Part shown: positions 20,142-22,759 of the stretch, piece by piece
Layout: each line of letters begins with the position of its first letter
Numbering within the stretch: position 1 is the first letter of the stretch
DNA from: Gloeophyllum trabeum ATCC 11539
Lineage: Eukaryota; Basidiomycota; Agaricomycetes; Gloeophyllales; Gloeophyllaceae
Assembly (NCBI RefSeq): GCF_000344685.1
Contig: NW_006920421.1
Coordinates: forward strand, 1,275,865 to 1,339,864
Length of the DNA stretch: 64,000 nucleotides
Direction: 5' to 3'
Notes under the pieces: generated by a model
Databases searched by the model: none
What the model saw: only the letters and a program-made list of their open reading frames with translations
Told to the model about the DNA's origin: nothing
Position numbers and translations under genes: made by a program

Positions 20142-22759
20142 ATGGGACGCCCTCTGGAGACCTCTAGCAGCGAAAGCTTGACTGTGCGAGACAATCGTAC
20201 CGGCAAGACTTACAATATACCGTGAGTTGTGCAATGAGTGTCATGACCAGTCCGAGTTACGACGCGGGTGGATACCTAGCATTGTGGACAACTCTGTGTC
20301 GGCGACGGCGTTCAAGGCGATCTCTGCCCCGGCGAAGCCGAATGAGCGCGAGGAGAGCGGGACGGAGAAGGGTCTGCGGGTTGCGGATAAGGGGTTCTTG
20401 AATACTGCTGTTATTCAGAGCGAAATAACTTATATTGATGGAGAGGCTGGTGGTATGTCCCACTGGCCTGTGACTGCCCCATATTCTGATGAGGGCGCTC
20501 TGCGTATCCAGTACTTCGCTACAGGTAAATCACACTCAGCCATGTAATGGCATGGCAGCCTTAACGGAATATCATCCAGAGGATATCCTATTGAACAACT
20601 CGCTCTACACTCTTCGTTCTTGGAAACCGCGTACCTACTAATCTACGGCTCGCTGCCCACGAAAGACCAGTTCCGTGTCTTCGAGACGGAGGTTCTGCAC
20701 CACAGCATCATTCATGCAGACGCGGAGGAGTTTTTCCGCTCCTTCCGGTAAGACTGCCCTGTGAGTATTCACTGTGCCTGGCTGATTTCCTGGTATGCAG
20801 CTACGATGCGCACCCTATGGCGATCCTTACGAGCGCGTTCGCCTACCTGGGGTCGTACTACAGTGAAGCCAATCCGTCGCTCCAAGGCAGGCAGTGTTGT
20901 GCTCTCAGACAAGCTGTATTCCATCTGATACGCAATTGAAGGGCAAACGCTCTTCACAAAGGGCGACAAGGCGTCCCTTGCAAATATGGACAAGCAGATA
21001 TTCAGGCTCATCGGGAAAGCTACTACTCTTGCTGCGTAAGGGCTCTCCTTGATATTAAGAAATAGTGCTCGCGCTGACGCACTGTCAGTATGGCCTACCG
21101 TATACGCCAGGGTCGAGACTTCGTGATTCCCCCGACAGGACTGAGCTACACCGGATCGTAAGGAGGCCTCCTTCCTGCTACACCCCTGCACTCATCAATA
21201 TCTTCCTTATGCAGCTTTCTCTATCAAATGGACCACCTCGGCGAAGAAAACTATGTGCCGAACCCCGTGCTGTGCAAAGCGCTCGACGTGCTCTTCCTCC
21301 TGCATGCAGACCACGAGCTGAACGCGAGCTGCACCACCGTGCTGCAGACCGGCAGCTCGCTCGTGGACCCGTATTCGGCCATTGCGTGAGTCCGCCTGGG
21401 TTACTTCCCGTATAGGAGGAGAGGCTGATTGCAGGGAAAGGGCGGGGTGTGCATCGCTATAGTGCGTCTGGCATTGGCTCCTGATGGGGGATTTGACATT
21501 TATGGACGGTTTTGCAGCGGGCCGTTACATGGTTCGTGACTTCCTCTCGCGTGCCCGAACACCACGAGTCTAACATAGGTCCGATTTATAGGTGGTGCGA
21601 ACGAAGCTGTCATTCGCATGCTCATATCGATCGGGAGGTACGTAGCGCTGCAGCTCTCTGGAGACGGCTCTGACGCGACGTTGCAGCCCTGCAAACGTGC
21701 CTGCGTTCATTGAGGCTGTCAAGAGGCGCGAGAAGGTGCTGTCTGGGTTCGGTCACCGGTGAGTTTGTCAGTGTTTCGGAGTCAAGCGGAGCTGACAACG
21801 TGCTGGCAGTGTCTACAAGACGGTGAGACGGCCACTTGCTGTCAGGTTGCAAACCAGGCCTGACGACGTCTTCTTTTACGAATCAATAGACAGACCCGCG
21901 GTCATATATCATCCGCAAAACCGCAGACGAGGTCTTCAAGGTGTACGTACGCATCGCACCCTCGCACGCAAGCACGCGTTGAAGCTAAGCTTCCTTTGAA
22001 CAGGACCGGGCGCGACGAGCTCCTGGAGACCGCTATGGCGTTGCATGACGCAGCGATGAAGGACGAGTACTTCACGAAACGGCGACTGTACCCTAATGTG
22101 GATTTCTGGTGAGATCTCCATTGATAAAGTTAACTTCAGCGCTGACGGTTATTCCAGGAGGTGAGCGGTGATGCTTTGATTTGTGAATGACTGTTGAACA
22201 ATATCCGTGCGCTCAGCGGTCTCATATACCGCGCAATGGGTAAGTTCATTGCAGTATCGTGGTCCATGCAATTCACACCGCTAACAAAAATTTGCCAGGA
22301 TTCCCTATGGATTTCTTCCCAGTGCTGTTTGCAGTGCCGCGAGTGGTGGGATGGCTAGCGCACTGGAGGCAGGTGAGCGGCCAGGAGGCACTCCTGTCTG
22401 TCAGGAAATCGTTTGATTATATGATTGCAGATGATGTTGCAGGAAGGGGGCGTCAAGATCTGGCGGCCCAGGCAGGTCAGTATCTACTTCTCACCACTAC
22501 AGCCACATCCATAACAACTGTTGTAGATCTATGTCGGCGCAGGCAAGCGTGACTACGTCCCCATGGCTGAGCGGGAGAGCAGCTTGGTCAACAGCGATCC
22601 CAAGAAGACACCAAGCACGGTGCCGCACTCCGGGTGAGTGCCCTCACATTGTGCCCTGTCTTGGCACGCTCCTAACCATGGCGACGCGCGCGGGAAAACC
22701 GATCTAGGATGACCAAGCGCACGATGCTCGCGAGCTACAGAGGGAAGAGCAAGCTGTAG
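20142..22759 (+). CDS. Citrate synthase with peroxisomal targeting signal (SKL)
   Basis: Condenses acetyl-CoA and oxaloacetate to citrate. The spliced protein (21 exons, 1488 nt, 495 residues) ends in RGKSKL, a canonical PTS1 signal, and has no N-terminal mitochondrial presequence, so it should act in peroxisomes (glyoxylate cycle and export of beta-oxidation acetyl units). It has the catalytic trio: His in HADHELNAS, His in GFGHRVYK, Asp in PNVDFWSG. Other landmarks are VLRYRGYPIEQLALHSSF, LQGQTLFTKGDKASLANMDK, YGPLHGGANEAV and WLAHWRQMM. The type is the bacterial-like citrate synthase rather than the classical mitochondrial CIT1 type. The architecture is extreme: exons of 13 (20512-20524), 27, 14 (21518-21531), 13 (21810-21822), 3 (22158-22160) and 23 nt, and a GC...AG intron at 20887-20941. 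A 2-methylcitrate synthase role is possible but less likely given the PTS1. Confidence 0.92.
20887..20941 (+). other. GC-AG intron in citrate synthase
   Basis: The exon boundary fixed by the conserved LQGQTLFTKGDK motif places the donor at G|GCAGGC and the acceptor at GAAG|GG. The only GT in the area (after GGCAGGCA) gives the wrong phase. GC-AG introns are a minor but known class in fungi. Confidence 0.65.
22158..22160 (+). other. 3-nt microexon (GAG) of citrate synthase
   Basis: The exon before ends TTC TG at 22108 and the exon after starts C GGT at 22217. Reading GAG at 22158-22160 between them gives TGG AGC GGT, restoring the conserved W-S-G after the catalytic Asp (NVDFWSGLIYRAMG). GAG is preceded by TTCCAG and followed by GTGAGC, both strong splice sites, and the two flanking introns are 49 and 56 nt, normal for this gene. 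Skipping it would stay in frame but yield NVDFCGLIY. Confidence 0.75.

What the first reader, a model, noticed from the sequence alone, without database searches (positions are those of the whole stretch)
22109..22216. In-frame 3-nt microexon at the active site of citrate synthase
Seen: exon ends TTC TG (22108), next obvious exon starts C GGT (22217). Between them lies TTCCAG|GAG|GTGAGC at 22155-22166, giving two introns of 49 and 56 nt, both normal for this gene. With GAG the protein reads NVDFWSGLIYRAMG, matching the family; without it NVDFCGLIY. The piece sits right after the catalytic Asp, so inclusion or skipping would decide enzyme quality while keeping the reading frame. Three-nt exons are near the lower limit for splicing, and such a case is rarely described in fungi.
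Basis: partly seen in the sequence, partly recalled or inferred. Interest (0 to 1): 0.78.

Follow-up and report, generated by a model that had tools for sequence, protein, structure and literature searches.

The report
Three-nucleotide exon in fungal citrate synthase
A fungal gene for a peroxisomal citrate synthase contains what is almost certainly a real exon only three letters long, right beside the enzyme's catalytic residue; the transcript-like sequences found here keep it, while many public gene predictions of related mushrooms drop or misread it.

Summary
GAG at 22158-22160 lies between two canonical GT-AG introns of 49 and 56 nt. Including it, my 21-exon model encodes a 493-aa protein identical to a database protein (P0001) listed with a 1,589-base contig, too short for the 2,618-base unspliced gene and so almost certainly a spliced mRNA. 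It is the only parse with canonical sites found that gives NVDFWSGLIY; 0.014% of shuffles give as good an element. In an ordinary homology search (best 120 of 8,000 hits), 25 of 25 short-contig proteins read FWSG against 57 of 95 genome-model proteins; 20 of the 95 read NVDFCGLIY, the skipped form. With two more searches, one of them aimed at skips: 39 of 39 contigs against 64 of 148 models. Best reading: a constitutive, probably clade-wide microexon that gene predictors often miss, not a regulated switch. Ultra-small exons, down to 1 nt, are known in plants and Fusarium, so it is a new member of a known kind. Minor or conditional skipping is not excluded. No relative's DNA could be read, so conservation of the exon itself is inferred from proteins.

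The parts
22158..22160 (+). 3-nt microexon GAG (exon 16 of 21): last base of Trp codon TG|G and first two of Ser codon AG|C
   Evidence: only parse found with two canonical introns giving NVDFWSGLIY; model protein identical to P0001
22004..22108 (+). exon 15, ends AAT GTG GAT TTC TG (GAT = the Asp of NVD, catalytic by established knowledge of the family)
22109..22157 (+). intron 15, 49 nt, CTG|gtgaga ... ttccag|GAG
   Evidence: leave-one-out scores against this gene's introns: donor 7.9 bits (5th of 20), acceptor 3.1 bits (14th of 20)
22142..22146 (+). CTGAC, likely branch point of intron 15
22161..22216 (+). intron 16, 56 nt, GAG|gtgagc ... gctcag|CGG
   Evidence: donor 7.0 bits (10th of 20), acceptor 0.0 bits (18th of 20, weak); best branch-like motif ATGAC is weak
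22217..22239 (+). exon 17, 23 nt, codes (S)GLIYRAM(G)
20142..22759 (+). coding region of the citrate synthase gene from start to stop, 21 exons and 20 introns, 493 aa
   Evidence: PF00285 E 5e-115 with the 486-aa first model
20512..20524 (+). 13-nt microexon (exon 3)
21441..21461 (+). 21-nt microexon (exon 9), codes (A)AGCASL(Y); missed in my first model and recovered with P0001
21518..21531 (+). 14-nt microexon (exon 10)
21810..21822 (+). 13-nt microexon (exon 13), codes (R)VYKT
22748..22756 (+). codons for the C-terminal Ser-Lys-Leu, a peroxisomal targeting signal type 1 (stop at 22757-22759)
   Evidence: the meaning of SKL is established knowledge

Best explanation
GAG is a true, constitutively included 3-nt coding exon of a bacterial-type peroxisomal citrate synthase. 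The two flanking introns are short and each is recognised across the intron (intron definition), one after the other: whichever goes first leaves the three bases attached to a normal exon, so the second splice is ordinary. The three bases double as the exon side (GAG) of the second 5' splice site, so they lie in the U1 pairing site. Skipping would need a 108-nt intron, outside the 49-74 nt range of this gene's other introns, which should favour inclusion. Inclusion keeps Trp-Ser shortly after the catalytic Asp; skipping removes one residue and very likely harms the enzyme; retaining either intron gives a stop within two codons. Shown: the sequence, canonical sites, protein identity to a transcript-like contig product, the frames of the alternative products. 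Inferred: RNA nature of the contig, order of splicing, loss of activity on skipping, and presence of the same exon in the DNA of other Agaricomycetes.
For: 493/493 identity of the 21-exon model to P0001, listed with a 1,589-base contig. Of 96 two-intron parses giving the peptide, one has canonical sites throughout. Donors rank 5th and 10th of the gene's 20; CTGAC 12 nt before the end of intron 15; lengths 49 and 56 against 49-74, mean 57, for the other 18 introns. Contig proteins FWS 25/25 against 57/95 models, Fisher p 2e-5; over three searches, with the skip-aimed included, 39/39 against 64/148. In the same 95 models the 13-, 21-, 14- and 13-nt exons have a nearby indel in 3, 0, 0 and 0 proteins, the 3-nt exon in 21. 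The three solved-structure alignments printed read NVDFYSG, so the residue count looks ancestral.
Against: The mRNA is seen only through its translated protein; the contig's letters could not be read, and that source 'lgn' means assembled public reads is my recall. The acceptors rank only 14th and 18th of 20 and intron 16 has a weak branch-like motif. 57 of 95 models do read FWS, so predictors do not always fail. Assembled contigs show main isoforms only. No relative's genomic DNA was read.
Confidence: 0.93

Rival explanations
1. Regulated cassette microexon: skipping makes a one-residue-shorter NVDFCGLIY isoform that tunes or poisons the enzyme under some condition.
For: Skipping keeps the frame. 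The skipped sequence stands in 20 of 95 models and 60 of 148 over three searches. A fungal microexon switch exists: Xlr2 of Trichoderma virens, 20 nt (PMC11121469, abstract and passages).
Against: 0 of 44 contig-derived proteins carry it; among the 120 listed hits of a search aimed at it it stood only in genome models. The three solved-structure alignments printed keep the residue. The 108-nt intron it needs is atypical for the gene.
Confidence: 0.05
2. No microexon: a single 105-nt intron with non-canonical TG...TC ends (22110-22214) gives the same mRNA.
For: It is the one one-intron parse that yields the same peptide. Any GT-AG intron can be reparsed this way, keeping G at one side and AG at the other.
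Against: TG-TC is no spliceosomal intron class that I know of (recalled); the other 18 introns of the gene are GT-AG, one of them GC-AG; it leaves AG|GAG|GTGAGC, a 0.014% coincidence, and the CTGAC before it unexplained.
Confidence: 0.02
3. The exon is skipped as a rule and the protein really reads NVDFCGLIY; AG|GAG|GTGAGC is chance.
For: Many submitted gene models say so; the skipped form still matches PF00285 well (374 against 385 bits).
Against: P0001 reads NVDFWSGLIY and is identical throughout to the model with the exon; the 39 contig proteins counted as Agaricomycetes agree.
Confidence: 0.01

Closest known systems
One-nucleotide exon of CYP621A in Fusarium (PMC12940212; passages incl. 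abstract)
   Same: ultra-small exon inside a conserved enzyme motif in a fungus; AG...GT flanks; composite intron more than twice the median; missed by gene models; confirmed there by reads
   Different: 1 nt, so omission breaks the frame; ascomycete P450; here 3 nt, in frame, basidiomycete citrate synthase
Small conserved plant microexons, incl. 1-nt exons of APC11 and VPS55 (PMC8831610; passages)
   Same: conserved, usually included, often misannotated; competition between the two flanking introns proposed because both cannot assemble at once
   Different: plants; other genes; intron retention is said to be commoner than skipping there
Microexons of Phanerochaete chrysosporium P450 genes (PMC1184071; passages)
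   Same: Agaricomycete, microexons among small 45-55 bp introns
   Different: shortest exon reported there is 6 bp; other genes
Xlr2 20-nt microexon switch of Trichoderma virens (PMC11121469; outline, abstract, passages)
   Same: microexon with a function in a filamentous fungus
   Different: 20 nt and regulated by glucose; no sign of regulation here
Citrate synthase 3, peroxisomal (PDB 9x0i)
   Same: same family; same motif region, NVDF(Y/W)SGLIYRAMGFP
   Different: Tyr in place of Trp

Membership tests
Constitutive ultra-small microexon (<=15 nt) | both flanks are canonical introns of normal length | tested here: met
Constitutive ultra-small microexon (<=15 nt) | inclusion seen in transcripts | tested here: met
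   at protein level only: P0001 identical over 493 aa, listed with a contig too short to be unspliced
Constitutive ultra-small microexon (<=15 nt) | exon conserved in relatives | tested here: inconclusive
   protein pattern fits (FWS in 39/39 contigs, skipped form in 60/148 models), but no relative's DNA was read; pattern scans gave 2 bacterial chance hits in genome contigs and none in two scans of viral contigs
Constitutive ultra-small microexon (<=15 nt) | near-complete inclusion | not testable with these tools
   needs reads
Regulated cassette microexon | both isoforms occur and change with condition | tested here: inconclusive
   0 of 44 contig proteins skipped; minor isoforms would be invisible
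Recursive-splicing exon | first splice leaves a usable 5' splice site at the junction | tested here: met
   by inspection TG+GAG|GTGAGC remains after removal of intron 15; order of removal untested
Peroxisomal bacterial-type citrate synthase | citrate synthase domain over its full length | tested here: met
   PF00285 positions 1-357 of 357; best PDB match is named citrate synthase 3, peroxisomal
Peroxisomal bacterial-type citrate synthase | NCBIfam TIGR01798 or NF004126 equivalog cut-off | tested here: not met
   439.7 against 485 and 474.2 against 505 bits; these models serve bacteria and archaea, so 'bacterial-type' here means nearest kind only
Peroxisomal bacterial-type citrate synthase | C-terminal PTS1 | tested here: met
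   ends SKL; location in the cell not tested

The most novel reading that the evidence does not exclude
A 3-nt exon gained about the root of the Agaricomycetes has been kept through the class in a core enzyme and doubles as a splice-controlled switch: under some condition it is skipped, giving a one-residue-shorter, poorly active subunit that mixes into the enzyme oligomer and damps peroxisomal citrate production.
Probability: 0.04. Interest if true: 0.8.

Novelty: new member of a known kind. Interest (0 to 1): 0.5.

Why it matters
It puts a 3-nt exon, near the lower limit of splicing, beside the catalytic residue of a core enzyme, with protein-level signs of conservation across mushroom-forming fungi. 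It offers a natural test of how a spliceosome working by intron definition copes with a 3-nt exon. It also points to a systematic annotation error: in an ordinary homology listing 38 of 95 genome-model proteins do not read FWS at this place while 25 of 25 contig proteins do, and the skipped form could be mistaken for biology.

Tried and rejected
My first gene model had 20 exons and lacked a 21-nt exon; the gap showed in the alignments and was filled from P0001 and the DNA. Searches used that 486-aa model. Paralogues as an intron-position control: the genome has other PF00285 matches on C9, C3 and C10. L009 (C9) reads NVDAHSG without an intron there; L010 (C3) reads NVDATSG followed by a GTACGT (by eye; searches list frames). 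They look like another type and do not bear on the microexon. L011 (C10) was fetched but not read. Genomic DNA of relatives: no fungal collection was open; pattern scans gave only L012 and L013, bacterial chance hits, not used, and nothing in viral contigs. The idea that W itself marks the microexon was dropped: rust and Microbotryum models also read FWSG, others FFSG or FYSG, with no indel there in 31 Pucciniomycotina models, so W alone proves nothing. Structure prediction was not run, as it would not tell activity.

Limits of the counts: each homology list shows the best 120 of thousands; the proteins are representatives of 90% clusters; favours complete models; favours skips. The split into 'contig' and 'model' was made by hand from the sources column (lgn and/or jgi only = contig); most of these contigs are under 2 kb, but P0093's is 2,789 and P0095's 5,997 bases. 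The clades of unnamed contigs were assumed by me. Three bacterial proteins (P0181-P0183) were left out of the clade counts; one Agaricomycete (P0097) and two Pucciniomycotina proteins had no motif that the pattern could read. With a slightly wider margin (3 residues) and the skip-enriched set, the 13-, 21-, 14- and 13-nt exons do show indels, in 18, 9, 7 and 11 of 148 models, against 61 at the 3-nt exon, and one contig shows one at the first 13-nt exon.

Full report
What is there. The window gene on the + strand, 20142-22759, is a citrate synthase with 21 exons and 20 introns in 2,618 bases. It matches PF00285 over its full length, its best solved relative by sequence is named citrate synthase 3, peroxisomal, and it ends in SKL, a peroxisomal targeting signal (meaning of SKL is established knowledge). 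Its closest named relatives in the listing are Neolentinus lepideus and Heliocybe sulcata, both at 89% identity, so the fungus is probably of the Gloeophyllales (inference; placement of those genera recalled).

The observation. Exon 15 ends TTCTG at 22108, exon 17 starts CGGTC at 22217, and GAG at 22158-22160 lies between introns of 49 and 56 nt: CTG|gtgaga...ttccag|GAG|gtgagc...gctcag|CGG. Included, the protein reads NVDFWSGLIYRAMG; skipped, NVDFCGLIYRAMG; retention of either intron or both gives a stop within two codons of NVDFW.

Is it real? The 21-exon model translates to 493 residues, identical throughout to P0001, a protein of source 'lgn' listed with a longest contig of 1,589 bases. A contig of that length cannot hold the unspliced gene, so it is almost certainly a spliced mRNA; its letters were not available. 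With the outer exons fixed by the genome, Trp and Ser demand that the three added bases be GAG or GTC. Of 96 two-intron parses that give the peptide with any dinucleotides at the ends, one has canonical sites at all four, and it is this one; the only one-intron parse would need TG...TC ends. Shuffles of the interval gave a Trp-Ser restoring AG-NNN-GT in 0.13%, and with a GTRNG donor in 0.014% of 50,000 trials; an AG-NNN-GT of any content is not rare, 9.5%. The full pattern (donor, AG-GAG-GT, acceptor) occurs once in the window and in 0 of 100 shuffles of it, but that pattern was written from the site itself.

Splice signals. Scored leave-one-out against the gene's own introns, the two donors get 7.9 and 7.0 bits (5th and 10th of 20), the two acceptors 3.1 and 0.0 bits (14th and 18th of 20). 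Intron 15 has CTGAC 12 nt before its end; intron 16 has only a weak ATGAC (a matrix of my own). The other 18 introns run 49-74 nt, mean 57.3, sd 6.0; a single 108-nt intron would be far outside.

Relatives. In one search, an ordinary search, the 120 listed proteins (of 8,000 scored) split into 25 from contigs (lgn and/or jgi only) and 95 genome models. All 25 contig proteins read FWS. Of the 95 models 57 read FWS, 20 FC (the skipped form), 13 FCS, 3 FWC, 1 FWYVR, 1 unreadable; Fisher p 2e-5. As a control in the same 95 models, the 13-, 21-, 14- and 13-nt exons show an indel within two residues in 3, 0, 0 and 0 proteins, against 21 for the 3-nt exon; the variable last exon has 36. A second search aimed at the skipped form (so biased towards it) listed many more skipped proteins; all that were listed are genome models. 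Over the three searches, contigs counted as Agaricomycetes give FWS 39 of 39; models give FWS 64, FC 60, FCS 19, FWC 3, FWYVR 1, unreadable 1 of 148. Some contig proteins have a near relative whose model differs, for example P0115 at 94% to the Thelephora terrestris model P0132, which reads FC. In Pucciniomycotina the 31 models and 5 contigs read mainly FFS, FWS or FYS, with no indel at this place.

What it most likely is. A constitutive 3-nt coding exon, probably shared by Agaricomycetes at large, dropped or patched by many gene predictions. Since rust models also read FWSG, a likely history is an uninterrupted TTC TGG AGC GGT into which two introns came 3 nt apart in the agaricomycete line (inference; no relative's DNA was read). 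Mechanism: sequential removal of two short, intron-defined introns, the three bases serving as the exon part of the second donor. A plant study proposes competition between the two introns flanking a microexon, since both cannot be assembled on at once (PMC8831610, passages).

Consequence of skipping. The lost residue lies just after the Asp-Phe of the NVDF motif, where the three solved-structure alignments printed keep NVDFYSG. That the Asp is catalytic is established knowledge of the family; loss of activity on skipping is an inference.

What is known. Nine searches of the open-access library (listings only) showed no paper on a microexon in a fungal citrate synthase; subscription papers are mostly not held. 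In print are a 1-nt exon in Fusarium CYP621A (PMC12940212, passages), exons down to 6 bp in Phanerochaete P450 genes (PMC1184071, passages), 1-nt plant exons and a regulated 20-nt exon in Trichoderma (PMC11121469, abstract and passages). So this is a new member of a known kind, notable for its place, its apparent breadth and the repeated annotation error.

Noticed in passing
window 20142-22759: Six of the gene's 21 exons are 23 nt or shorter (13, 21, 14, 13, 3, 23 nt), a microexon-dense gene.
   Followed up: partly
window 20887-20941: Intron 5 is a GC-AG intron (AAG|gcaggc...ttgaag|GGC).
   Followed up: no
window 21386-21461: The 21-nt exon is entered through a weak acceptor, gggaaag|GGC, 6 nt after a better-looking ttgcag that would add two residues; P0001 supports the former.
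   Followed up: partly
L010 about 3160-3300 (G000:C3): Another citrate-synthase-like gene with many short introns; a likely intron falls just after NVDATSG, close to the microexon site of the window gene.
   Followed up: no
database proteins P0002, P0003 and others reading NVDFCSG: Models of the nearest named genera read CSG, which may be a predictor's patch (an acceptor 3 nt upstream) or a real variant; undecided without DNA.
   Followed up: no
window 23086-23925: Neighbouring gene seems to code a small secreted Ser/Ala-rich protein with a signal peptide and a hydrophobic tail, as in GPI-anchored proteins (by eye).
   Followed up: no
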